Below, one piece after another: positions 752 to 12,224 of a stretch of DNA of 64,000 bases. The DNA lies in assembly GCF_023822005.2 (NCBI RefSeq), contig NZ_CP098806.1, forward strand, positions 5,516,501-5,580,500. Reading direction: 5' to 3'. The notes beneath the pieces were generated by a model. That model did not search any database. It saw only the letters and a program-made list of their open reading frames with translations, and was not told the DNA's origin. The DNA comes from Dyadobacter fanqingshengii. GTDB lineage: Bacteria > Bacteroidota > Bacteroidia > Cytophagales > Spirosomataceae. The first letter of the stretch is position 1. Each line of letters begins with the position of its first letter. The position numbers and the translations under genes were made by a program.

Positions 752-1561
752 ATGAACAGGAAAAGCACGCAATCTGAAAAAGCTGATTTGTTTAAAAAGC
801 TACATTATAGCAAGCAAATGCTGGTTTTGCCTAACATTTGGGATGTTACGGGTGCTGCATTGCTTGAAGAAACCGGTTATCTGGCTGTTGCCACTGCCAG
901 TGCGGCTATCGCGCGCGCCAATGGTTTTCAGGATGGCGAAAAAATACCTTTTGAGCAAGCGCTGAATGTGATTACGCAAATCGTTAATGCGGTTGAAGTG
1001 CCTGTTACCGCTGATATCGAATCCGGTTATGCCACTGATTTACAGGAATTAAAGATCAATGTTCGCAAGATTTTAGCAACTGGCGTTGCAGGAATTAACA
1101 TAGAGGATAGCGACCCGAAAACCAATAAACTGCTGCCTGTTGATTTGCAAGTCGAGCGCATCAGGCTGGTCCGGAAAGTAGCCGAAAAAGCGGGCGTCCG
1201 GCTGTTCATTAATGCCAGAACAGATATTTTCCTGAAACCCGGTTCACTTACAAATGACGAAAAACTGAAAGTGGCCATCGAGCGCGGATGTGCCTACGCG
1301 GATGCTGGCGCGGACGGAATTTACCCCATATTCGTGCAGGACGAGACGGCCATTGCGGCCCTGGTAAATGAGTTTGTTGTTCCTGTAAACATATTAATTA
1401 CCAAAGGGACGCCTGAACTGGAAAAGCTCCAAAAGCTCGGTGTGGCAAGGGTGAGTTTTGGCCCTAACCTTCAAAAAGCAATGCTGTTAGCCATGAAAAC
1501 ATCGTTGAAAAGTATGAAAGAGAAGTTTAGCCACAGCCTGATCACGGATGTGCTGGTTTAA
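752..1561 (+). CDS. Isocitrate lyase/PEP mutase superfamily protein
   Basis: This 269-residue cytoplasmic protein belongs to the PEP mutase/isocitrate lyase superfamily (PF13714 group). The N-terminal LPNIWDVTGAALLEETGY and VATASAAIARANGFQDGE segments are typical, as are the metal-binding acidic stretches PVTADIESGYA (residues about 88-98) and GINIEDSDP (about 113-121). Members cleave or rearrange C-C or C-P bonds beside a carboxylate: isocitrate, methylisocitrate, oxaloacetate, phosphonopyruvate. This subgroup lacks a settled substrate. It ends at its own terminator and is separated from the phosphonate-type operon by the regulator gene. A role in phosphonopyruvate chemistry is therefore possible but not shown, and the motif after EDS differs from that of true PEP mutases. 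Confidence 0.8.
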   Translation: MNRKSTQSEKADLFKKLHYSKQMLVLPNIWDVTGAALLEETGYLAVATASAAIARANGFQDGEKIPFEQALNVITQIVNAVEVPVTADIESGYATDLQELKINVRKILATGVAGINIEDSDPKTNKLLPVDLQVERIRLVRKVAEKAGVRLFINARTDIFLKPGSLTNDEKLKVAIERGCAYADAGADGIYPIFVQDETAIAALVNEFVVPVNILITKGTPELEKLQKLGVARVSFGPNLQKAMLLAMKTSLKSMKEKFSHSLITDVLV

Positions 1562-1685: not shown

Positions 1686-2261
1686 ATGCAGGAGGATATT
1701 CTTTTTCAGATCAGCAATAAATTAAAGGAAGTCAGGAAAAATAAAGGTGTTACGTTGCAGGAAATTGCAGATGAAGCCGGTGTTACCAAGAGCCTCGTTT
1801 CGCAGATTGAAAACAGCCGCACCATTCCTTCGCTTCCTGTGATGCTCGGCCTGATCAAGGCGCTTGACATTGATTTGAATGTGTTTTTTAAAGACATTAT
1901 CTCGACAGCTCCTGGCGACAATGTGCTCATTCGCCGCAAGGAAGAATATCAGCCCTTCACCAAAGAAAATGCCAAAGGCTTCTATTATCACCGCATTTTC
2001 AGCAAACAATTCAAAGACAACCACATTGACGTGGTCCTGCTCCGGCTCGAAAAAGACGCCAAGCGCCCGATGGTGCGCACCAATGCCTACGAATTCAAAT
2101 ATGTGCTGCAAGGTTCAGTTGAATACACGGTTGGGAAAAACAAATATATCCTGAACCAGGGCGATTCAATGTTTTTCGACGCCAATGAGCTGCACAACCC
2201 CAAATGTATCCATGGCGACGAAGTGTTGTTGCTGGTGATCTATTTCTTCAACGAAGCTTAA
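1686..2261 (+). CDS. XRE-family transcriptional regulator with C-terminal cupin
   Basis: This 191-residue regulator has an N-terminal XRE-type helix-turn-helix (residues about 9-62, with GVTLQEIADEAGVTKSLVSQ as the DNA-reading segment) and a C-terminal cupin barrel (about 110-188, with EFKYVLQGSVEYTVG and LNQGDSMFFDANELHNP). In this architecture the cupin binds a small ligand and the HTH represses or activates a neighbouring catabolic operon. It lies directly upstream of the aminophosphonate-type operon on the same strand, so it is the likely local regulator. Dyads occur both before it (1621-1665) and after it (2281-2309). The ligand is not known; an aminophosphonate or its oxo product is an inference from context. 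Confidence 0.9.
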   Translation: MQEDILFQISNKLKEVRKNKGVTLQEIADEAGVTKSLVSQIENSRTIPSLPVMLGLIKALDIDLNVFFKDIISTAPGDNVLIRRKEEYQPFTKENAKGFYYHRIFSKQFKDNHIDVVLLRLEKDAKRPMVRTNAYEFKYVLQGSVEYTVGKNKYILNQGDSMFFDANELHNPKCIHGDEVLLLVIYFFNEA

Positions 2262-2280
2262 CTTTTTATTTTATTTTGGG

Positions 2281-2309
2281 GTAAATGTTAAATATTAATT
2301 AACATTTAC
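2281..2309. promoter_or_regulatory. Perfect 11-bp-arm palindrome upstream of the operon (candidate operator)
   Basis: GTAAATGTTAA at 2281-2291 is repeated exactly inverted as TTAACATTTAC at 2299-2309 around a 7-base spacer. It lies between the regulator stop and the putative -7 box at 2336. It is AT-rich with no T-tract of terminator type directly after it, so an operator for the adjacent XRE-cupin protein is more likely than a terminator. Confidence 0.5.
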
Positions 2310-2335
2310 TTAACTTTAATTCTCAGGCATATCAC

Positions 2336-2343
2336 TAGTTTTG
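2336..2343 (+). promoter_or_regulatory. Putative -7 promoter box (TAGTTTTG) of the aminophosphonate operon
   Basis: TAGTTTTG matches TAnnTTTG exactly, 27 bases downstream of the 2281-2309 palindrome. It would give a leader of about 120 bases before the ATG at 2472. No convincing -33 TTG was found. Confidence 0.35.
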
Positions 2344-2471
2344 TGCCTTGATGGGTTCATTAATGATCCTCATTGGCGCTTGCACGCACTTTCAGGCCTT
2401 ATCCAGATATTACGAAATTCGTAAACCCTTCTCTTAAAATTCAGTATTTGTTCACCAATATATATGCAAAG

Positions 2472-3182
2472 ATGTTAATAGAACTGGTTGTTTTTGACAT
2501 GGCGGGGACCACGGTTAAGGACAAAAATTTTGTAGGAATTGCGTTTCAGCAAGCAATGCAATCGCAAGGTTATGACATTGCCATCGAAGATGTAAATCCT
2601 TTGATGGGATATGAAAAGCCACTGGCTATCAGGATGATGCTGGAAACGCGCGAAGCGGATAAGGCCAAAATCACAGATGTGCTGGTAAACGACATACACA
2701 CGCATTTCGTGAACGGAATGATCCAGTTTTACAGCACCACGCAGGAAATAGGGCCATTGCCACATGTGGAAGAAACTTTTGCAACATTGCGGGAGGCTGG
2801 CGTGAAGATCGCTCTGAACACTGGATTTTCAAGGGACATTGCAGATGTGATCATCGACCGGCTTGGCTGGGTGGATAAAATTGACTGCCTGGTAGCTAGC
2901 GACGAAGTGCCCTTTGGTCGCCCATATCCGGATATGATCAATAAAATTAGAAAAGAACTTAATATAACATCGGCTGCAAACGTCGCCAAAGTAGGTGATA
3001 CTGAGGTGGATATTAATGAAGGAATCAATGCAGGCTGCAAATTTGTAATCGGGATAACAACCGGCGCATTCACGGCTGACCAGCTGCTTCCTTACAAGCC
3101 CACGCACATTATCGACGACATTTCGGATGTGGTTGCCATCATTTCAGAAAGTCCGGCTTTTGCTGGCGAGATTCACAAATAG
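2472..3182 (+). CDS. Phosphonatase-like HAD hydrolase (TIGR03351 type)
   Basis: The ATG at 2472 gives a 236-residue protein; a TTG at 2373 would add an unrelated 33-residue extension, so 2472 is preferred. It has the phosphonatase form of the HAD nucleophile loop, DMAGTT (nucleophile Asp9, with Ala11 where most HAD enzymes have Asp). A cap-domain lysine in MGYEKPLAIR (Lys49) aligns with the Schiff-base lysine of phosphonoacetaldehyde hydrolase (MGLLK). The usual late lysine is replaced by Arg in FGRPYPDM, and GDTEVDINEG supplies the Mg-binding acids. These traits define PhnX-like enzymes expected to cleave the C-P bond of a 2-oxo-ethylphosphonate, giving phosphate and an aldehyde. It is the first gene of the operon; the FAD enzyme follows after 20 bases. 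Confidence 0.88.
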   Translation: MLIELVVFDMAGTTVKDKNFVGIAFQQAMQSQGYDIAIEDVNPLMGYEKPLAIRMMLETREADKAKITDVLVNDIHTHFVNGMIQFYSTTQEIGPLPHVEETFATLREAGVKIALNTGFSRDIADVIIDRLGWVDKIDCLVASDEVPFGRPYPDMINKIRKELNITSAANVAKVGDTEVDINEGINAGCKFVIGITTGAFTADQLLPYKPTHIIDDISDVVAIISESPAFAGEIHK

Positions 3183-3202
3183 CAAATTTTAACAACATCA
3201 GG

Positions 3203-4333
3203 ATGAGTAAATCTGCTATTGTTATTGGAGCAGGCATTGTAGGATTAGCCACGGCAAGGGCTTTGGTGTCAAGAGGTTACCAGGTTACGGTGATCGAGCG
3301 TTCTTCGAAAGCTGTGGGCGCGTCTATCCGGAATTTCGGAATGGTGTGGCCGATCGGGCAGCCGGAAGGAACATTATATAATAGAGCATTGAAAGCCAAA
3401 AGCATTTGGAAAGAAACGCTGACGGAGGCTAAATGCTGGTTTTATGAAGGTGGAAGCTTGCACATGGCATATCAGAATGATGAGCTGGAAGTGATCAAGC
3501 AGTTTGTTGAGGTGAGTGCTTACCGGCCTGTGAAGGTCCTGAGTGCTGCTGAAACTTTGGAAATGTCGCCTGCGGTGAATGGAAACGGCTTGTTAGGGTC
3601 CTTATATTCTGCCGATGAAATGATCGTCGACCCGCGGGAGGCCATTGCGGGCGTTGCGCGTTACTTACAGGACAAGTGGAGTGTGACTTTTCATTGGGAC
3701 ACCGCCATTTCGCAAATCAATTATCCGCATGTTTCATCCGGCTCTAAAAGCTGGTCGGCGGACGAGATTTTTGTTTGCAGCGGGCAGGATTTTGAAACAT
3801 TATATCCGGCCGAATTTGCAGCTGCGCCTTTGACCAAATGTAAATTACAAATGCTCCGTCTCGAAGCGCAGCCCAACGATTGGAAAATCGGCCCGGCATT
3901 GTGCGGCGGACTTTCACTGATCCATTACGACGGTTTCAAAGCCGCACCTTCGCTGGCAGGTTTGAAAGCAAGATATCAGGAAGAATACAGCGAATATCTC
4001 AAATGGGGCATTCATGTGATGGCTTCCCAAAACGGTCTGGGCGAGATTACAGTGGGTGATTCGCACGAATATGCACTCACATTTGACCCGTTTGACCGCG
4101 AATTTATTAATAAAATGATCCTCGATTACTTGGGCACATTTGCGCAGTTCAAATCGCCCAAAGTTTCCCAAACCTGGAACGGGATCTATCCGAAAATGAA
4201 GAACGGCAAGACGGAAATCGTCTTAAAGCCCGAACAAGGCGTTACGATCATCAACGGACTCGGCGGAGCAGGCATGTCGCTCTCTTTCGGTCTTTGCGAT
4301 GAGGTGATCGGCGGGACTTACAGTGAAACCTAA
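3203..4333 (+). CDS. FAD-dependent aminophosphonate-type oxidase (DAO fold, TIGR03364 type)
   Basis: This 376-residue protein has an N-terminal Rossmann dinucleotide site (IGAGIVGLATARAL, Gly9/11/14, with Glu in VIERS binding ribose) and the C-terminal INGLGGAGMSLSFG loop of D-amino-acid-oxidase-like flavoproteins. Families of this kind occur next to the phosphonatase-like HAD protein and are thought, or in some cases shown, to oxidise 2-aminoethylphosphonate or its N-methyl or hydroxy derivatives to phosphonoacetaldehyde (PbfC/PbfD type; from memory of the literature). In this operon it would feed the HAD hydrolase. The exact amine substrate cannot be read from sequence. It is cytoplasmic, with no signal peptide. 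Confidence 0.82.
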   Translation: MSKSAIVIGAGIVGLATARALVSRGYQVTVIERSSKAVGASIRNFGMVWPIGQPEGTLYNRALKAKSIWKETLTEAKCWFYEGGSLHMAYQNDELEVIKQFVEVSAYRPVKVLSAAETLEMSPAVNGNGLLGSLYSADEMIVDPREAIAGVARYLQDKWSVTFHWDTAISQINYPHVSSGSKSWSADEIFVCSGQDFETLYPAEFAAAPLTKCKLQMLRLEAQPNDWKIGPALCGGLSLIHYDGFKAAPSLAGLKARYQEEYSEYLKWGIHVMASQNGLGEITVGDSHEYALTFDPFDREFINKMILDYLGTFAQFKSPKVSQTWNGIYPKMKNGKTEIVLKPEQGVTIINGLGGAGMSLSFGLCDEVIGGTYSET

Positions 4334-4344
4334 ACCCTTAATTT

Positions 4345-5283
4345 ATGTTGCTCAGAATTTCGTTTCTCTTATCATTTGCAGCGTTTTCCACAATTTGTTT
4401 TGGCCAAAAAGACAGGCCTAAAGGCATTGAGCATGTGATTGTTATCGGTGTGGATGGGCTTAGTCCGGACGGGATTAACAAAGGAAAATCGCCCGTGTTG
4501 CACGATATGATCGCCAACGGCAGCGTTAAATGGAATGTGCGCACGGTGCTCACTTCCGCCAGCAGCCAGAACTGGGCTTCCATGATCATGGGCGCGGGAC
4601 CTGAGCAACATGGCATTATCAACAATGACTGGGAAATTGACAAGCACACTTTGCCGCCGATCGTGCAGGAAAAGGACGGGCGCTTTCCCACAATTTTCAG
4701 TATATTTCATAAAGCGAATCCCAAGGCGGAAATTGGCGTAGTGTACCATTGGGATGGATTTGGAAGGCTATTCCAAAAAGACGCAGTGAATCACGACAAG
4801 CGTTTTGGCACTGAGGATTCCACTGCCACTGATTTTGTCAATTATATCAAAACCAAAAAACCTGCACTGGGTTTTGTACATTTTGATCACGTAGACCACG
4901 CCGGCCATCACGGCGGCCACGGCTCAGCAGAATATTATCAGTCCGTCGCCAAAGCCGATTCGCTGATCGGAAAAATACTTTCCGGTCTGAAAGATGCCGG
5001 GATTATGGACAAAACATTGGTGATCATCTGGGCGGACCATGGCGGCATTAATAAAGGCCATGGCGGCGCAACGCCCCAGGAAGCCGAAATTGCCGGGATT
5101 TTTTATGGTAAGGATGTTAAAAAAGGATATAAGATCGAGCAGGAAGTTTATACTTACGACCTCGCTTCCACCATTGCATTTGTGCTTGGCATTCAGCAAC
5201 CCTATGCCTGGATCGGTCGTCCTGTGAAACCTGCATTTGAAGGCCTTAAAGAGCCGGAAAATCTTTGGAAAGGCGAGAAATAG
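4345..5283 (+). CDS. Secreted alkaline-phosphatase-superfamily hydrolase (NPP-like)
   Basis: This 312-residue protein has a signal peptide (cut after about residue 20, ..ICFG/QK), so it acts in the periplasm or outside the cell. The metal and active-site pattern of type I phosphodiesterase/nucleotide pyrophosphatases is present: Asp37 in VIGVDGL, the nucleophile region SSQNWASMIMG (Ser73 where NPP enzymes have Thr), DHVDHAGHHGGHG (about 181-193) and WADHGG (Asp231, His232), then GHGG. The same fold includes phosphonoacetate hydrolase, phosphonate monoester hydrolases and phosphodiesterases. It lies between two cytoplasmic phosphonate-type enzymes with gaps of 11 and 6 bases, so it probably releases a small phosphonate from an ester or removes phosphate outside. 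The substrate is unknown. Confidence 0.78.
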   Translation: MLLRISFLLSFAAFSTICFGQKDRPKGIEHVIVIGVDGLSPDGINKGKSPVLHDMIANGSVKWNVRTVLTSASSQNWASMIMGAGPEQHGIINNDWEIDKHTLPPIVQEKDGRFPTIFSIFHKANPKAEIGVVYHWDGFGRLFQKDAVNHDKRFGTEDSTATDFVNYIKTKKPALGFVHFDHVDHAGHHGGHGSAEYYQSVAKADSLIGKILSGLKDAGIMDKTLVIIWADHGGINKGHGGATPQEAEIAGIFYGKDVKKGYKIEQEVYTYDLASTIAFVLGIQQPYAWIGRPVKPAFEGLKEPENLWKGEK

Positions 5284-5289
5284 AAAAAT

Positions 5290-6645
5290 ATGGTTCAGCA
5301 CAACAGAACAGAAGGAGATATCAACTTATCGGAGGCGCGCCGTGACTGGTATGCCGTGATGAGCGATCCCGAAACTGTTTCTTATCTGGAAGAAGATGCG
5401 GAGCATTTCCTGCACCAGTCGTTGTCGACGCCTTGCCTGGATGTGCTGGCTTCCTGTGAGGGGATTTATCTGACTGATATTCAAGGCAAAAGTTACATGG
5501 ATTTCCACGGCAACAATGTGCACCAGCTCGGTTACCGGAATCCTTATATCATTGAAAAAATAAAAGAACAACTCGATATCCTGCCTTTTTCGCCGAGGCG
5601 ATACTCCAATGTTCCGGCGATTGAGCTCGCAAAGAAACTGGGAAGTCTGCTCCCAGGAAACCTCAAACGCGTGCTTTTCGCGCCGGGAGGCACTTCGGCG
5701 ATCAGTATGGCGCTGAAACTGGCGCGGATCGTGACGGGAAAGCATAAAGTTGTTTCGCTTTGGGATTCCTTTCACGGCGCTTCGCTGGACGCCATTTCTG
5801 CTGGAGGTGAACTGGATTTTCGCAAGGATATGGGCCCTCTAATGCCCGGCGTGGAGCGCATTCCGCCGCCTATGACTTACCGCGGACCATTTGCCGCTGC
5901 GGGCAACGGCGATCTGGCTTACGCGGATTATCTGGAATATGTCATTGAAAAAGAAGGTGATATAGGTGCTTTTTTAATTGAAACGATCAGAAACACAGAC
6001 GTTCAGATTCCTTCGCAAGCTTATTGGAAGAAAGTCCGCGAAATCTGCACGAAGCATAATGTTTTGCTCATTCTCGACGAGATCCCGATCGCATTTGGGA
6101 GAACGGGCAAAATGTTTGCATTTGAGCATTACGACATTGAGCCGGACATTGTTTGTCTGGGAAAAGGATTGGGCGGAGGCGTAATGCCCATGGCCGCCAT
6201 CGTGGCCCGCGACACGCATAACATTGCCCAAAGCGTTTCGCTGGGGCATTTTACACATGAAAAAAGTCCGCTGGGGAGCGTAGCTGCATTGGCCATGCTC
6301 GACTATATGGAGCAAAACCGGATCCTGGAAAAAGTGCAGGAAGACGCCGTTTTCATGGCCGCTGAATTACAAAAATTACAAGATAAATTTCCCTTGATCG
6401 GGGATGTGAGGGGCGTGGGATTGTTGTGGGGGATTGAATTAGTAAGAGACAAAGACACCAAGGAAAAAGCCGTAAAGGAAGCTGAAATTGTGATGTACGA
6501 ATGCCTTAAAAATGGTTTGAGTTTCAAAGTTTCGCAGGGAAATGTGCTGCAATTATCGCCGCCGCTGATCATCAGCCGCGGGCAGTTGCGCGAAGCCTTG
6601 CTGATCCTTGAAAACGCCCTTGGGAAGGCCTCCGTCTTTGTGTAA
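5290..6645 (+). CDS. pbfA: Class III aminotransferase-fold PLP enzyme, PbfA-like ammonia-lyase
   Basis: This 451-residue fold-type I PLP enzyme of aminotransferase class III has the cofactor lysine at Lys292 in CLGKGLGGGVMPM, the LILDEIPIAFGRTG segment before it and the APGGTSAISMALKLAR phosphate-binding loop. Its N-terminal LSEARRDWY and HGNNVHQLGYRNP segments differ from usual omega-aminotransferases. They fit my recollection of PbfA, the (R)-1-hydroxy-2-aminoethylphosphonate ammonia-lyase, which gives phosphonoacetaldehyde and ammonia. The context (PhnX-like HAD, FAD oxidase) is where PbfA occurs. Ordinary transamination of an aminophosphonate is the alternative. The gene starts 6 bases after the previous stop. 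Confidence 0.75.
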   Translation: MVQHNRTEGDINLSEARRDWYAVMSDPETVSYLEEDAEHFLHQSLSTPCLDVLASCEGIYLTDIQGKSYMDFHGNNVHQLGYRNPYIIEKIKEQLDILPFSPRRYSNVPAIELAKKLGSLLPGNLKRVLFAPGGTSAISMALKLARIVTGKHKVVSLWDSFHGASLDAISAGGELDFRKDMGPLMPGVERIPPPMTYRGPFAAAGNGDLAYADYLEYVIEKEGDIGAFLIETIRNTDVQIPSQAYWKKVREICTKHNVLLILDEIPIAFGRTGKMFAFEHYDIEPDIVCLGKGLGGGVMPMAAIVARDTHNIAQSVSLGHFTHEKSPLGSVAALAMLDYMEQNRILEKVQEDAVFMAAELQKLQDKFPLIGDVRGVGLLWGIELVRDKDTKEKAVKEAEIVMYECLKNGLSFKVSQGNVLQLSPPLIISRGQLREALLILENALGKASVFV

Positions 6646-6663
6646 TTCATAAAAACCAGTGCT

Positions 6664-7965
6664 ATGCGTTTACAAAAAGCATTGCAGCGTTCCAACACGC
6701 TGTTCATTGCCTGGGCTGTCATTGCCTCATTTGGAGCTTATTTTTGCATGTATGCGTTCCGGAAACCCTTTAATGCAGGTCTTTATCAGGGACTCGAACT
6801 CGGCGACGTCAGTTACAAAGCGATCCTGATCATTGCGCAGGTTGCGGGTTATACACTTTCTAAATTCGCAGGGATCAAGGTCATTTCCGAGTTGCAACAC
6901 AGCTCCCGGATCAAGCTTATTCTTTCTTTAATCCTTGTTGCTGAAATCGCATTGCTTTTCTTCGGACTTGTTCCTTACCCTTACAATTTTATTTTCCTGT
7001 TTATCAATGGCCTGCCTCTCGGCATGGTTTATGGTGTTGTTTTTAGCTTTCTGGAAGGTCGCAGGTTTACGGAAATGCTTGCTATGGGGCTGAACATCAG
7101 CGTTGTGGTGGCTTCGGGGATTTTGAAAACTACTTACATTGAACTCCACACCATGCTTCCCGGTATTTCGGAATTCTGGATGCCGGTGTTTATGGGCGCA
7201 TTGTTCCTGCCGTTTTTCTGCTTTTTTGTATGGATGCTTTCGGTTATTCCAAAACCCACGCAGGAAGACATTCAGCTGCGAACCGAGCGGAAGCCGATGA
7301 CGAGAGAGGATAAGCGACTTGTTATGGCGCAATTTGGCTTTCCGATCGTTTGTCTGGTCGTTTTCTACGCAACGCTTGTCGTATTGCGCGATTTCCGGGA
7401 CAATTTTACCATTGAAATATGGAACGAGATCGATGCAAACTGGGGAAGCAGCGTTTTCACGACAACGGAAATGATCACCGGAGTTGTGGTGCTCGTGATT
7501 ATCGGCAGTCTGGCTTTTGTACGCGACAATGTCAAGGGTTTCCGCCTTACCAACCTGATCCTGTTCTCCTCTATTTTCCTGATGGGCGCTGGGACTTTCC
7601 TGTTTCAGCAAGGGAAAATCAATGGCTTTTACTGGATGCTAATGGTGGGATTGGGGACTTTCCTGGCGTACACAGTGCTGCAAACGGTTATTTTTGAGCG
7701 CATGATCGCCCTTTTCAGGATGAAGGCCAATGCAGGGTTTTTCGTTTATATCTGCGAAAGCATTGGTTATCTCGGAAGTGTGGCTCTGCTGCTGTATAAG
7801 GAGTTCTTCATGAAAGACCTGAGCTGGTCCAAAGTGCTGATGCAGTTCACTTACATTCAATTCTTCCTTGGCTTTGTACTGCTGGCATGTGCCAACATTT
7901 ACCTGGAAAAAATCAGAACCTCACGCGACCAGAAAGCAGACGATTCCAGCCTGGCGGCTGCATAA
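6664..7965 (+). CDS. DUF5690 MFS-type permease
   Basis: This 433-residue integral membrane protein has about 12 hydrophobic segments. It opens with FIAWAVIASFGAYFCMYAFRKPF, a sequence of the DUF5690 group related to the organophosphate:phosphate antiporter (GlpT/UhpT-like) MFS branch. The YAFRKPFN motif resembles the (M)YxxRxxF segment near the start of those phosphate-ester carriers (inference). It is the last gene of the operon, 18 bases after the PLP enzyme and before a strong terminator. Uptake of the phosphonate substrate through the inner membrane is the natural inference, especially as no PhnCDE-type ABC transporter is present. Confidence 0.8.
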   Translation: MRLQKALQRSNTLFIAWAVIASFGAYFCMYAFRKPFNAGLYQGLELGDVSYKAILIIAQVAGYTLSKFAGIKVISELQHSSRIKLILSLILVAEIALLFFGLVPYPYNFIFLFINGLPLGMVYGVVFSFLEGRRFTEMLAMGLNISVVVASGILKTTYIELHTMLPGISEFWMPVFMGALFLPFFCFFVWMLSVIPKPTQEDIQLRTERKPMTREDKRLVMAQFGFPIVCLVVFYATLVVLRDFRDNFTIEIWNEIDANWGSSVFTTTEMITGVVVLVIIGSLAFVRDNVKGFRLTNLILFSSIFLMGAGTFLFQQGKINGFYWMLMVGLGTFLAYTVLQTVIFERMIALFRMKANAGFFVYICESIGYLGSVALLLYKEFFMKDLSWSKVLMQFTYIQFFLGFVLLACANIYLEKIRTSRDQKADDSSLAAA

Positions 7966-8335: not shown

Positions 8336-8550
8336 AGTCAATCTAATGGATGCTTGTTGGATTTTTTCAATAAGTGAGCTTATGGTAATATGAATGGTTC
8401 TAATTGATGATGAGTAATTTAAAGGTATTTACGAGGTCCAGTTAGATTTTGAAATACGATTTTTCCGAGGAAAGTTAATTTTTATTTAACATTGGAATAG
8501 TGCAATAATGTAAGATGTATTAGGAAATAAATTTTCCCTAAATTGTGGGC

Positions 8551-9729
8551 ATGGCTAAACTTATCAATCTCCGACCGTTTAAAGAATTTTTACAATCAGG
8601 ATCAGCGGGTGGAATTATCCTCATTATATGCGTCATCGTTTCGCTGATCATTGCCAACACAGGTGCGGGCCCGGAATTGGAAGCTTTGCTGGCCAGCGAG
8701 CTGGGATATCATTTCGGAAACATTCACCTTAAATATTCCTTGCTGATCTGGATCAATGACGGTTTGATGGCGATCTTTTTTCTGATGGTGGGATTAGAGA
8801 TAAAGAGAGAGTTGGTTGAGGGAGAATTATCATCTTTGAAGAAGGCAGCATTGCCCATTTTCGCGGCGCTTGGGGGTGTGATCGTGCCCGCGGTGATTTT
8901 TTCAATTTTCAATAAAAATACGCCGACCGCCGGGGGCTGGGGAATTCCCATGGCCACAGACATCGCTTTTGCGATTGCCATCATTACCATGTTGGGCAAA
9001 AAAGTGCCTGCCTCACTAAAAATTTTCCTCGCCGCACTCGCCATTGTAGACGATTTAATGGCCATTCTGGTCATTGCTGTTTTTTACTCTTCCGATCTGC
9101 ATTACACTTACTTGCTTTACGCGGGAGGAATTTTTGGTGTACTATTGATATTCAATAAACTCGGCGTCAAAAACCTCGCAGCATATCTTATCCCTGGCCT
9201 ATTTATCTGGTATTTTATCCATCATTCCGGTGTACATGCAACCATTGCAGGCGTGCTCACAGCATTTGCGATTCCTACAACGCCCGACGCCACAGAATCG
9301 CCATTGGAAAAGCTGGAACATATTCTGATGACTCCCGTCAATTTTGTGATTATGCCGGTTTTTGCATTGGCTAACACCAACATTGCGTTAGAAAGCTCCA
9401 TGATCCAAGGGCTCACAACGCCTCTGGGACTGGGCATAATATTGGGATTGGTTGTGGGGAAACCGGTGGGAATAACAGCACTTTCCTGGTTGTCTGTAAA
9501 GCTGGGAATCAGCGCCAGACCGCACGGCGCGGGCTGGCTTCATATCATCGGCGTGGGCATGTTGGGAGGAATTGGCTTCACCATGTCCGTTTTCATTGCG
9601 CTGCTTTCCTTCGCTGGTCAGGATATGATCCTATCCGAAGCCAAATTTTCCATCCTGACCGGCTCTATTTTGTCTGGCTTAATGGGATATGCGATGCTGA
9701 CCTGGGTTAGCAAAAAGTCTGCTAAATAA
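8551..9729 (+). CDS. nhaA: Na+/H+ antiporter NhaA
   Basis: This 392-residue protein starts at ATG 8551; a GTG two codons earlier is also possible. About 12 transmembrane segments are present. The family landmarks are visible: NDGLMAIFFLMVGLEIKRE, GWGIPMATDIAFAIAII and the paired aspartates in ALAIVDDLMAILVIAVFY that bind Na+ and H+ (Asp163/Asp164 in E. coli NhaA). It exchanges internal Na+ for external H+ in the inner membrane for salt and alkaline tolerance. Length is typical. It stands alone, convergent with the gene at 9742, with no obvious regulator beside it. Confidence 0.95.
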   Translation: MAKLINLRPFKEFLQSGSAGGIILIICVIVSLIIANTGAGPELEALLASELGYHFGNIHLKYSLLIWINDGLMAIFFLMVGLEIKRELVEGELSSLKKAALPIFAALGGVIVPAVIFSIFNKNTPTAGGWGIPMATDIAFAIAIITMLGKKVPASLKIFLAALAIVDDLMAILVIAVFYSSDLHYTYLLYAGGIFGVLLIFNKLGVKNLAAYLIPGLFIWYFIHHSGVHATIAGVLTAFAIPTTPDATESPLEKLEHILMTPVNFVIMPVFALANTNIALESSMIQGLTTPLGLGIILGLVVGKPVGITALSWLSVKLGISARPHGAGWLHIIGVGMLGGIGFTMSVFIALLSFAGQDMILSEAKFSILTGSILSGLMGYAMLTWVSKKSAK

Positions 9730-9741
9730 TGAGTAACCGCC

Positions 9742-10248
9742 TTATTCCGTTTTTGCTTTGATCAGGATATATTCGATTTTATTGCCGTTGCCAAATGCTG
9801 AGATCTGAGAATATTTTTCATAATTATCCCACCTTTTGAGTTGCTTTTCATCAATGTTCGGCTTAATGCTTTCTTTCAGGTTAAGTATTCCCAGCACAAC
9901 ACGGTCTTCAAAATCATAGTCGGAAAGTTTATTCAGCTGGATCTGATCGGCGATCTCATTGATATAAATAATTTCCACCTTTCCCTCGCGATAGATCATT
10001 TTAGGGCATTTTTCACACCCTGCAACCTCATCCTTATAATAACTGTCCAGCGTCCCTTTACCCAAAACCGCTTCCACCTCTTCCATATTGCGCAGCGCAA
10101 CTTTTGGTAAATCCAGTTCAACAGTCACCGGAGCGTTTTCGTCGCCGTCACCGAGCACGAAGAATTTAATAAAAATGGCAACGAGAATAATAACAAAGGC
10201 AATGAATTTCCAATTTGCCCATTTACGCTTAACAGTAGCTTTTTCCAT
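9742..10248 (-). CDS. Membrane-anchored protein of unknown function
   Basis: The ATG at 10248 gives 168 residues: a basic N-terminus (EKATVKRKWANW), one membrane segment (about residues 12-32, rich in Ile/Val/Phe) and a soluble C-terminal domain outside the cytoplasm. An upstream GTG/TTG-type extension to 10350 would overlap the divergent endonuclease V gene and is not preferred. A CEKCP pair of cysteines lies about residue 71, in a segment (VEAVLGKGTLDSYYKDEVAGC) like small SmpA/OmlA-style lipoprotein folds; that likeness is weak. No family is named with confidence. Confidence 0.65.
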   Translation of the reverse strand: MEKATVKRKWANWKFIAFVIILVAIFIKFFVLGDGDENAPVTVELDLPKVALRNMEEVEAVLGKGTLDSYYKDEVAGCEKCPKMIYREGKVEIIYINEIADQIQLNKLSDYDFEDRVVLGILNLKESIKPNIDEKQLKRWDNYEKYSQISAFGNGNKIEYILIKAKTE

Positions 10249-10318
10249 GAGGATGGCTTGATTTTTTAATAAACCGAGAATCTTTAAGGTTACACAAAGA
10301 ATATCATGCCAGTCGCAT

Positions 10319-11035
10319 ATGGACAGAATTATTGAAACACCGGAATCCAATTACGGACAACTCACCATTGCCGAAGCTAAGCTCATCCAGGAAAATTTGG
10401 GGGAGCAGATTAATCTTTCGCCTATGGAGGGGGAAATTAAGACCATCGCGGGTGCCGATATTTCTCTGGACATAAACAGCGAGAAGGTTTATGCCGGCAT
10501 GGTTGTCCTCAGCTATCCCGATTTGGAGCCGATCGCTTATTCGCTCGTCGAAACCATCAATATGTTCCCTTATGTGCCGGGTTATCTCGCTTTCCGCGAA
10601 ATTCCAGCCCTATTGAAGGTTTACGAACAAATTCCGGTGAAGCCGGATTGCATTATGTTTGACGGAAACGGGATTCTGCACGCACGCAGGCTTGGAATCG
10701 CCACCCACTTCGGCGTTCTCACCGATACGGTAACATTGGGCTGTGCCAAGAAGAAGCTGGCCGGAAATTACGCCGATCCGGGTGAAATGAAAGGAGAATA
10801 TTCGCTGGTAACTGATAAAGGCGACACGATTGGATATGCACTTAGAAGCAAGTTGAATGTGAAGCCTGTTTTTATATCGCCCGGACACAAAATGAGTCTT
10901 AAAGACAGTATGGACATTACTTTGCAATGTCTTGGGAAACACCGGCTTCCGGAACCCACCCGCAGGGCGCATGAGTTTGTGAACAGGTTCCGGATCGGCG
11001 AATTGAAAGAAGGCTTTCACGAGTTGGAACAGTAA
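10319..11035 (+). CDS. nfi: Endonuclease V (deoxyinosine 3' endonuclease)
   Basis: This 238-residue protein carries the endonuclease V motifs: IAGADIS with the first metal aspartate (about residue 46), the strand-separating wedge FPYVPGYLAFRE, MFDGNGILHARRLGIATHFG with the second catalytic aspartate, and TLGCAKKKL. It cuts DNA one base 3' of deoxyinosine from adenine deamination, starting repair; some homologues act on inosine in RNA. It is cytoplasmic and of typical length. It is divergent from the gene at 10248 and ends 13 bases from the convergent chitinase gene. Confidence 0.93.
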   Translation: MDRIIETPESNYGQLTIAEAKLIQENLGEQINLSPMEGEIKTIAGADISLDINSEKVYAGMVVLSYPDLEPIAYSLVETINMFPYVPGYLAFREIPALLKVYEQIPVKPDCIMFDGNGILHARRLGIATHFGVLTDTVTLGCAKKKLAGNYADPGEMKGEYSLVTDKGDTIGYALRSKLNVKPVFISPGHKMSLKDSMDITLQCLGKHRLPEPTRRAHEFVNRFRIGELKEGFHELEQ

Positions 11036-11048
11036 AGCCTGTTCTGGC

Positions 11049-12224
11049 CTATTTAAATGTTTTATCGATCTCGTCTAAAAGATAGGTTTTGGAGTCGGAA
11101 TCGTATTCCCAGAACATCACGCCTGCTAACTTTTTGTCCAACACATATTTACATTTTTCCCGGACAGACTGCTCGTCGTCGTAGCTTAACACATCACCTG
11201 TTTTCGCATTGAGCAGATAAGGCGCTTTTGCAACTTCATCCCGGTATTCTTTGAAACCGTTTTTGTTGACCATGCTATCCTTGATCATTGTGTAACCATC
11301 CACATATTTTTGGGAAATCTGTTTTTGGCCAAGGCCTTTATCCAGCTTCGCAACCCTGAACATGCGTCCGTAAAACGGAAGGCCTACAACAAGTTTGTTC
11401 ATCGGAACGCCTTCTGCCGAAAATGCTTTCACTGCATTATCCACAGAATGACTTGCTTTATAAATGTCAGAGTTATACAAAGCGGCGTGATGCACCGCAG
11501 TATCACCCTGGAAAAGGTCGTAAGTCATCATATTCACATAATCCAGATAAGCCGCGGCTTTGCCCATTTCAACCACTTTCAGAAAGGACGTGAAGCCCGG
11601 AACAGCCGTGGTAAGCAGCTTTTTCTTGCCCGATTCTTTTTCAAAAACATCCAGTTCTTTGCGGATTGCTTCGAACATTAATGTGAAATTCTGCTTATCC
11701 TCGGGTCGGTAAACGTTGCCGTCTTCGCCAGGCATGCCGGGATATTCCCAGTCAATGTCCACGCCGTCGAGGTCGTATTTTTTAATAATGTCAACAGAAC
11801 TCGCTGCGAAGACTTTCCGGGAAGCTTCTGTTAAGACGGCGTCAGAGAAATTTTCACTCCATGTCCAGCCGCCCAGGGAAATCAGGATTTTAAGGTCCGG
11901 GTTCTTCTCTTTCAGTAATTTAAGGTTACGGAAGTTAGTGGAATCTGTTTTTTCATTGGTTAAAAAAGCTTTTCCTTTTTGCACATCTACAAATGCATAG
12001 TTAATGTGCGTAAGCTTTTCAACTTCAATGCGATCGGTGTTCACAAGCCCGCGGAATCCGCCTACATAACCAATCACAACCGGCTTGGTCGCCGAGCTGT
12101 CAGCCGTGGCGGTTTCCTCCTTTTTCTCTTCTGATTTGCAGGCAGTTGTGAGCAACAACGGCGAAAGCACCAGCATTGCCGCAAGGGATGGGAGCAGGGT
12201 TTTGGTAAATTTTAAAAAAAGCAT
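11049..12224 (-). CDS. GH18 chitinase-like lipoprotein
   Basis: This 391-residue protein has a lipoprotein signal (LLLTTAC, Cys29), so it is membrane-anchored on the outside of the inner or outer membrane. The catalytic motif DGVDIDWEYPG gives the acid Glu of glycoside hydrolase family 18, which uses the substrate N-acetyl group as nucleophile. Other GH18 strands are visible: ILISLGGWTWS, MTYDLF, GLPFYGRMF and the C-terminal GVMFWEYDSD. It would cleave chitin or related GlcNAc polymers. No carbohydrate-binding module is present. It is a single gene convergent with endonuclease V. Confidence 0.92.
   Translation of the reverse strand: MLFLKFTKTLLPSLAAMLVLSPLLLTTACKSEEKKEETATADSSATKPVVIGYVGGFRGLVNTDRIEVEKLTHINYAFVDVQKGKAFLTNEKTDSTNFRNLKLLKEKNPDLKILISLGGWTWSENFSDAVLTEASRKVFAASSVDIIKKYDLDGVDIDWEYPGMPGEDGNVYRPEDKQNFTLMFEAIRKELDVFEKESGKKKLLTTAVPGFTSFLKVVEMGKAAAYLDYVNMMTYDLFQGDTAVHHAALYNSDIYKASHSVDNAVKAFSAEGVPMNKLVVGLPFYGRMFRVAKLDKGLGQKQISQKYVDGYTMIKDSMVNKNGFKEYRDEVAKAPYLLNAKTGDVLSYDDEQSVREKCKYVLDKKLAGVMFWEYDSDSKTYLLDEIDKTFK

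What the first reader, a model, noticed from the sequence alone, without database searches (positions are those of the whole stretch)
1686..7965. Compact aminophosphonate catabolic operon with its own XRE-cupin regulator
A phosphonatase-like HAD protein, an FAD amine oxidase, a PbfA-like PLP enzyme and an MFS permease are packed with 6-20-base gaps. The HAD protein keeps all phosphonatase marks: DMAGTT, the imine lysine in MGYEK, and Arg for the late Lys. This gives two parallel routes, oxidative and eliminating, to one 2-oxo-ethylphosphonate, with no PhnW transaminase and no ABC transporter. As a Bacteroidota version with a DUF5690 permease and a secreted hydrolase it may be undescribed.
Basis: partly seen in the sequence, partly recalled or inferred. 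Interest (0 to 1): 0.78.

Follow-up and report, generated by a model that had tools for sequence, protein, structure and literature searches.

The report
Bacteroidota aminophosphonate-scavenging operon
A bacterium carries a tightly packed, self-regulated gene set that looks built to break down natural aminophosphonates with known chemistry; its relatives add outer-membrane importers and secreted esterases, and they point to a likely job for an unassigned family of transporters (DUF5690).

Summary
The operon is real: XRE-cupin, HAD, FAD, NPP-type esterase, PLP and DUF5690 genes at 1686-7965, + strand, gaps 6-20 bases from HAD to MFS. The genome has no PhnW over cut-off, no PhnJ, no phosphonate ABC binding protein. 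The chemistry is published (PMC8154272, PMC10590968), so the two routes are not new.

What is new lies around it. 27 of 27 Dyadobacter loci keep HAD, FAD and DUF5690; of 80 PbfA loci across Bacteroidota, 25 add SusC and SusD and 39 an NPP-type esterase. DUF5690 genes sampled without regard to PbfA lie near aminophosphonate genes in 33 of 46 neighbourhoods; the predicted fold is nearest organophosphate antiporters, though other MFS families are close. A 17-bp operator precedes HAD in 27 of 27 Dyadobacter loci.

Caveat: 27 of 80 PbfA-type genes have no HAD, FAD or DUF5690 nearby. Nothing was tested biochemically.

The parts
1686..2261 (+). XRE-type HTH + cupin regulator (PuuR-like), probable dedicated regulator of the operon
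   Evidence: PF01381 and PF07883 over cut-off; PuuR model 40 bits, under its cut-off of 211; gene found upstream of HAD in 22 of 27 Dyadobacter loci (five loci show none in the stretch)
2287..2303 (+). 17-bp near-palindromic operator GTTAAATATTAATTAAC (pattern GTTNANTATTANTTNAC)
   Evidence: only exact match in the 6.27-Mb genome; exact match before HAD in 27 of 27 Dyadobacter loci; 15 invariant columns in 22 aligned intergenic regions
2336..2343 (+). TAGTTTTG, possible Bacteroidota -7 box (TAnnTTTG, recalled consensus)
   Evidence: read from sequence; similar in many but not all rows; inference
2439..2455 (+). second, weaker operator copy (2 mismatches) just before the HAD start
   Evidence: 17 of 27 Dyadobacter loci have two or more exact copies before HAD
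2472..3182 (+). HAD phosphonatase-like hydrolase (C-P bond cleavage of phosphonoacetaldehyde, inferred)
   Evidence: TIGR03351 197.8 bits, best but under cut-off 218.9; best PDB relatives are phosphonoacetaldehyde hydrolases; Asp9, cap Lys49, Arg150, Asp176, Asp180 conserved
3203..4333 (+). FAD-dependent aminophosphonate oxidase of the TIGR03364 / PbfD kind
   Evidence: TIGR03364 427 bits over cut-off 285.1; among the 120 listed of 7074 homologues, those with a source's name are mostly called TIGR03364 (one is called MnmC, a few 'oxidoreductase')
4345..5283 (+). secreted NPP-type (alkaline phosphatase superfamily) phosphodiesterase, short form; proposed aminophosphonate esterase
   Evidence: PF01663 105 bits; signal-peptide-like N-terminus (by eye); D37, S74, D181, H185, D231, H232, H239 invariant in 27 aligned proteins; predicted fold closest to Xac NPP
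5290..6645 (+). [quoted passage not shown]
   Evidence: NF049939 730.6 bits over cut-off 525
6664..7965 (+). DUF5690 MFS permease, proposed aminophosphonate:phosphate antiporter of the inner membrane
   Evidence: PF18943 484.9 bits; fold nearest G6PT/SLC37A4; Arg33 and Lys67 align with Arg45 and Lys80 of GlpT

Best explanation
It is a dedicated aminophosphonate-utilisation operon, a reduced version of a locus found across Bacteroidota. A secreted NPP-type esterase frees aminophosphonates (AEP, N-methyl-AEP, hydroxy-AEP) from esters such as lipids or surface glycans (inferred). In relatives a SusC/SusD pair moves the substrate through the outer membrane; here that pair is missing, so free small aminophosphonates may enter through porins or an unlinked receptor (inferred). 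DUF5690, an OPA-like antiporter, carries them over the inner membrane in exchange for phosphate (inferred from fold, signature residues and neighbourhood). The TIGR03364 oxidase turns N-methyl-AEP and/or AEP into phosphonoacetaldehyde; the PbfA-type lyase turns (R)-hydroxy-AEP into the same aldehyde (both inferred from family membership; each reaction is shown in print for family members). The HAD enzyme forms an imine with Lys49 and cleaves the C-P bond, giving phosphate and acetaldehyde (inferred from conserved residues). The XRE-cupin protein binds the 17-bp operator before HAD and is probably relieved by the substrate or an intermediate (the site's conservation is shown; binding and ligand are inferred).
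For: Family models over cut-off for FAD and PLP. HAD aligns to phosphonoacetaldehyde hydrolase with the catalytic residues; cap Lys and Arg in 75 of 75. No PhnW over cut-off, PhnJ or PhnD-type gene in the genome; one TIGR03351-type gene, this one (the next matches are 52 bits or less). HAD, FAD and MFS in 27 of 27 Dyadobacter loci, NPP in 25 of 27. Among 80 PbfA loci: HAD+FAD+MFS together in 36 by ORF clustering, SusC and SusD in 25, an NPP (long or short) in 39. Independent sample by DUF5690: 33 of 46 neighbourhoods hold at least one of HAD, FAD, PbfA-like, PhnW-like; SusC or SusD in 17 of 33 against 1 of 13 (Fisher p 0.007). In L081 and L098 DUF5690, SusC/D and PbfA sit with a PhnW-type gene; L081's passes TIGR02326 and stands beside a HAD that passes TIGR01422. 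DUF5690 fold: the seven best Foldseek matches are all human G6PT; G6PT also ranks 1, 2 and 7 in the second look. Operator.
Confidence: 0.78

Rival explanations
1. The operon is only a free-AEP/N-methyl-AEP/HAEP scavenging set; the NPP gene is an unrelated general phosphodiesterase that hitch-hikes, and SusC/SusD in relatives serve another, phosphodiester, substrate.
For: The window's locus lacks SusC/D; NPP relatives act on phosphodiesters (PDB names); NPP not found in 2 of 27 Dyadobacter loci. The cluster SusDs belong to more than one lineage, so pairs were recruited or swapped repeatedly.
Against: NPP is inside the co-directional run with gaps of 11 and 6 bases; secreted esterases of several families recur beside DUF5690 when aminophosphonate genes are there, 17 of 33 against 1 of 13.
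Confidence: 0.3
2. The HAD and PLP enzymes act on a slightly different aminophosphonate, for example a 1-hydroxy or longer-chain aldehyde, rather than on phosphonoacetaldehyde.
For: HAD below both cut-offs; the cap His of classic PhnX is Ala in 69 of 75; the published note on TIGR03364 (quoted in PMC10590968) proposes 1-hydroxy-AEP; PbfA-type genes also occur in genomes where no phosphonatase was found.
Against: A TIGR03364 member (PbfD1, A. baumannii) was shown to make phosphonoacetaldehyde (PMC10590968); the PLP protein passes the PbfA equivalog model.
Confidence: 0.15
3. Ordinary amino-acid or polyamine catabolic operon (DAO-type oxidase, class-III aminotransferase, HAD phosphatase, PuuR-like regulator).
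For: Generic Pfam families; PuuR-like regulator; a broader 'aspartate aminotransferase family' model scores the PLP protein slightly above PbfA, 779 against 731 bits.
Against: Matches over cut-off to TIGR03364 and PbfA, phosphonatase residues, and PhnW and PhnX over cut-off in a locus of the same kind (L081).
Confidence: 0.04

Closest known systems
PbfD + PhnX pathway without PhnW (Mariniblastus fucicola; PMC10590968)
   Same: PbfD/TIGR03364-type FAD enzyme with a phosphonatase and no PhnW in the genome
   Different: Here a PbfA-type lyase, a DUF5690 permease, an NPP esterase and an XRE-cupin regulator are in the same run; the HAD is PhnX-like, not classic PhnX
PbfA-containing phnWX clusters (PMC8154272, PMC12366243; passages read)
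   Same: PbfA-type lyase beside a phosphonatase; the 2025 paper says pbfA with phnX also occurs outside Proteobacteria
   Different: No PhnW; no phosphonate ABC binding protein in the genome; FAD oxidase present
Phosphate utilisation systems (PusCD loci) of Flavobacterium (PMC8115612, two sections and passages read)
   Same: SusC/D with phosphodiesterases; that paper says that PusCD clusters co-localise with PMEs, PDEs and phosphonate-degrading enzymes
   Different: The parts read name no PbfA, FAD oxidase, DUF5690 or dedicated XRE-cupin operator; the window itself lacks SusC/D
AepP, GlpT-related 2AEP permease (PMC8316502, passages read)
   Same: MFS permease for aminophosphonate, relative of the organophosphate:Pi antiporters; that paper also found AepP in one Bacteroidetes, Kriegella aquimaris
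   Different: DUF5690 is a separate Pfam family with no sequence match to any PDB entry; AepP and DUF5690 were not compared directly

Membership tests
PbfA (NF049939) | score over the curated equivalog cut-off (525 bits) | tested here: met
   730.6 bits
PbfA (NF049939) | ammonia-lyase activity on (R)-HAEP | not testable with these tools
   no assay; genes scoring as PbfA also stand in genomes with no phosphonatase found, 7 of 10 tested
TIGR03364 / PbfD FAD oxidase | score over curated cut-off (285.1 bits) | tested here: met
   427.3 bits
TIGR03364 / PbfD FAD oxidase | place inside the PbfD clade next to PbfD1/PbfD2 | not tested
   reference sequences were not fetched; PMC10590968 states that PbfD1 is annotated TIGR03364
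PhnX-like, TIGR03351 | score over curated cut-off (218.9 bits) | tested here: not met
   197.8 bits, though it is the best model; relatives scanned: L030 212, L066 189, L098 179 under it, L080 229 over it
phosphonatase PhnX, TIGR01422 | score over curated cut-off (220 bits) | tested here: not met
   123.6 bits
phosphonatase PhnX, TIGR01422 | DxAGT nucleophile motif, cap Schiff-base Lys, Arg in place of the late Lys | tested here: met
   alignment to 1rql; Lys49 and Arg150 75 of 75
phosphonatase PhnX, TIGR01422 | cap His (His56, recalled numbering) | tested here: not met
   Ala52 here; Ala in 69 of 75
SusCD-type utilisation locus (PUL / PUS) | SusC and SusD pair in the locus | tested here: not met
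   absent between 1686 and 7965; best-scoring SusD match elsewhere in the genome is 35 percent identical to the Dyadobacter cluster SusD, others up to 45 percent over part of it; pair present in 5 of 27 Dyadobacter and 25 of 80 PbfA loci
organophosphate:phosphate antiporters (OPA: GlpT, G6PT) | phosphate-binding Arg45 and Lys80 of GlpT (roles recalled) | tested here: met
   Arg33 and Lys67 of DUF5690 align there and are invariant in 27 of 27
organophosphate:phosphate antiporters (OPA: GlpT, G6PT) | fold closest to OPA members | tested here: inconclusive
   G6PT ranks 1-7 in Foldseek and 1, 2 and 7 in the second look, but other MFS families are near

The most novel reading that the evidence does not exclude
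Bacteroidota have a phosphonate counterpart of polysaccharide utilisation loci: a SusC/D importer plus surface NPP-type esterases with CHB_HEX and PA14 domains harvest aminophosphonates bound to glycans or lipids of other organisms' surfaces, DUF5690 is an inner-membrane aminophosphonate permease of the phylum, and one XRE-cupin regulator with a conserved 17-bp operator controls the set. The window is a slimmed form that lacks SusC/D and the sugar-binding-type domains.
Probability: 0.45. Interest if true: 0.72.

Novelty: new variant of a known kind. Interest (0 to 1): 0.5.

Tried and rejected
PEP mutase-like gene at 752-1561 as part of the system: PF13714 only, far under every NCBIfam cut-off, and present in only part of the Dyadobacter loci; left out. 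NhaA at 8551-9726: a neighbour in part of the Dyadobacter loci, in none of the others; left out. Profile search of DUF5690 in the PDB gave nothing. The operator pattern with up to one mismatch is not enriched in the genome: 9+12 matches against 14+16 for the reversed control, so no wider regulon is claimed. SusD as one phosphonate-specific lineage: rejected, the cluster SusDs fall in at least two lineages (quick tree, long branches). A direct tree with the published PbfB/C/D references was not made, as those sequences were not fetched. The Foldseek search for NPP gives NPPs first but sulfatases close behind; it does not tell the substrate.

Papers: PMC10590968 (abstract, first parts of results and discussion, passages), PMC8115612 (two sections, passages), PMC8154272, PMC12366243, PMC8316502, PMC11203657, PMC9426549, PMC11892949 (passages); all others seen in listings only. 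That no paper names DUF5690 rests; that no paper of the library was found that describes SusCD uptake of aminophosphonates in this form rests; most subscription journals and all preprints are outside it.
Full report
Observation. The six genes exist at the stated coordinates, all on the + strand. From HAD to MFS the gaps are 20, 11, 6 and 18 bases. XRE to HAD is 210 bases and holds the regulatory site. NCBIfam: FAD is TIGR03364 (427 bits, cut-off 285); PLP is PbfA NF049939 (731, cut-off 525; a broader 'aspartate aminotransferase family' model, NF004755, scores 779); HAD is nearest TIGR03351 (198, cut-off 219), then TIGR01422 (124, cut-off 220). Pfam: the fifth gene is a type I phosphodiesterase/NPP, the last DUF5690.

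HAD. Its best solved relatives are phosphonoacetaldehyde hydrolases; DMAGTT, MGYEK and the late Arg align with theirs. In 75 HADs from these and related loci the cap Lys and the Arg are 75 of 75 and the nucleophile Asp 74 of 74 with a letter there; the position of the classic cap His is Ala in 69. So it most likely keeps the imine mechanism, but it belongs to the PhnX-like branch and misses that family's own cut-off too.

Genome. The window lies in a 6.27-Mb, two-contig genome, by its kin a Dyadobacter (inferred: named FAD homologues 94-96 percent identical; PLP 96 percent to Dyadobacter sp. CY347). No PhnW over cut-off (six weak class V hits, and all 14 controls ring as weakly), no PhnJ, no PF12974, no second phosphonatase-like gene near the score of this one.

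Relatives by PbfA. 80 loci (the best 80 of 318, so biased to near kin). tblastn of the window's proteins: HAD, FAD and MFS in 27 of 27 Dyadobacter loci, NPP in 25, XRE in 22; SusC+SusD in 5. Over all 80: at least one of HAD/FAD/MFS in 53, all three in 36 (37 if the HAD of L061, hidden by ORF calling, is added); SusC and SusD in 25; an NPP in 39, of which 29 in the long form of about 550 aa. In Flavobacterium the order is SusC-SusD-NPP-PbfA-(esterase)-MFS-FAD-HAD with XRE on the other strand; in Maribacter and Mangrovimonas the FAD-HAD block comes first and SusC-SusD-NPP-PbfA-esterases follow. In L081 and L098 no FAD gene was seen and a PhnW-type gene is there instead; in L081 both PhnW and PhnX pass their cut-offs. 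The one long NPP scanned (L030) carries CHB_HEX_C_1 and PA14 domains; the window's NPP is the short form (312 aa). Other secreted esterases scanned from the loci include a purple-acid-phosphatase-type enzyme, a second phosphodiesterase family and a protein with a weak phosphoesterase match.

Against: 27 of the 80 PbfA-type genes (26 with nothing, plus L047 with only an XRE gene) have none of HAD, FAD, MFS nearby (L089, one of them, has SusC, SusD and NPP on a short contig). Apart from L089 they fall in a few groups of the PLP tree, many in Chitinophagaceae, several in a shared non-phosphonate neighbourhood, and two of them scanned still pass the PbfA model (741 and 689 bits). Of 10 such genomes, 3 have a TIGR03351-type gene elsewhere (one over cut-off); the 7 others have no TIGR01422 match at 1e-20 (where no control rang). 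The Chryseolinea genome of L047 has a SusD-SusC-FAD-MFS-HAD set elsewhere (L165). So passing the PbfA model is not by itself proof of aminophosphonate use.

Relatives by DUF5690, a sample not chosen by PbfA. 42 of 395 genomes drawn over the phylum have it, 47 genes. In the 46 outside the own genome, up to about 20 kb each (fewer bases on some contigs), 33 have at least one of HAD, FAD, PbfA-like or PhnW-like; HAD 23, FAD 23, both 21, PhnW-like 8, PbfA-like 6; SusC or SusD in 17 of the 33 against 1 of the 13 others, and the same counts for secreted esterases (Fisher p 0.007 each). A phosphonatase-like gene occurs once in the own genome, so finding it within 10 kb by chance should be below one percent (inference). 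The 13 others may be a different DUF5690 branch (not tested).

NPP. Model pLDDT 80.5; best matches Xac NPP and ENPP3. The likely metal and nucleophile residues are invariant in 27 (assignment from the alignment and recalled NPP chemistry). A substrate with a phosphonate ester bond is inference.

Operator. In 22 aligned XRE-HAD intergenic regions one 17-bp block stands out, 15 columns invariant. GTTNANTATTANTTNAC has one exact match in the own genome, at 2287-2303. Among 175 loci then held, 30 have exact matches: 27 of 27 Dyadobacter loci, before HAD each time, 17 of them with two or more copies; two loci that cover the window's own site; and L128, between XRE and SusC (places compared). In 102 more distant loci scanned, 10 sites have at most one mismatch; 7 are in intergenic regions at XRE, SusC, HAD or MFS genes, one (L058) lies directly before a stand-alone PbfA-type gene, two elsewhere. 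A 1-mismatch copy also lies at 8474-8490 before nhaA.

SusC/D history. The PLP tree needs several gains or losses of SusC/D, and the window's own group of four lacks it. Cluster SusDs fall in at least two lineages. The own genome's best-scoring SusD match is 35 percent identical to the Dyadobacter cluster SusD, against 74-96 percent among cluster SusDs of Dyadobacter.

Known or new. PbfA, the PbfB/C/D oxidases and the PhnW-free PbfD+PhnX route are published; PusCD clusters with phosphonate-degrading enzymes are mentioned for Flavobacterium. New here, as far as the searches reach: the DUF5690 link, the conserved operator with a dedicated XRE-cupin regulator, and the recurring SusC/D + NPP + aminophosphonate set over the phylum. 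Hence a new variant of a known kind.

Noticed in passing
window 752-1561: Isocitrate lyase/PEP mutase-superfamily gene (PF13714) directly upstream; far below the cut-offs of the PEP mutase and phosphonopyruvate hydrolase models. Neighbour in part of the Dyadobacter loci.
   Followed up: partly
window 8474-8490: One-mismatch copy of the operator-like palindrome before nhaA (8551-9726); NhaA is a downstream neighbour in part of the Dyadobacter loci.
   Followed up: no
L048, L050-L060, L062 (around 10001-11330; L056 1732-3060, L060 9452-10738): PbfA-type PLP genes with no HAD, FAD or DUF5690 nearby, several in a shared non-phosphonate neighbourhood: the PbfA model may hide a second function. One of them (L058) has an operator-like site directly before it.
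   Followed up: partly
L081 8881-9966, L087 8722-9996: Secreted-looking proteins without any Pfam match between SusD/NPP and PbfA; by eye a PHP-like and a metallo-beta-lactamase-like start, so possible further esterases.
   Followed up: no
L121, L126, L137, L141, L144-L146, L149-L151, L154, L156, L159: 13 of 46 DUF5690 genes have no aminophosphonate neighbour; a different branch or stand-alone permeases.
   Followed up: no
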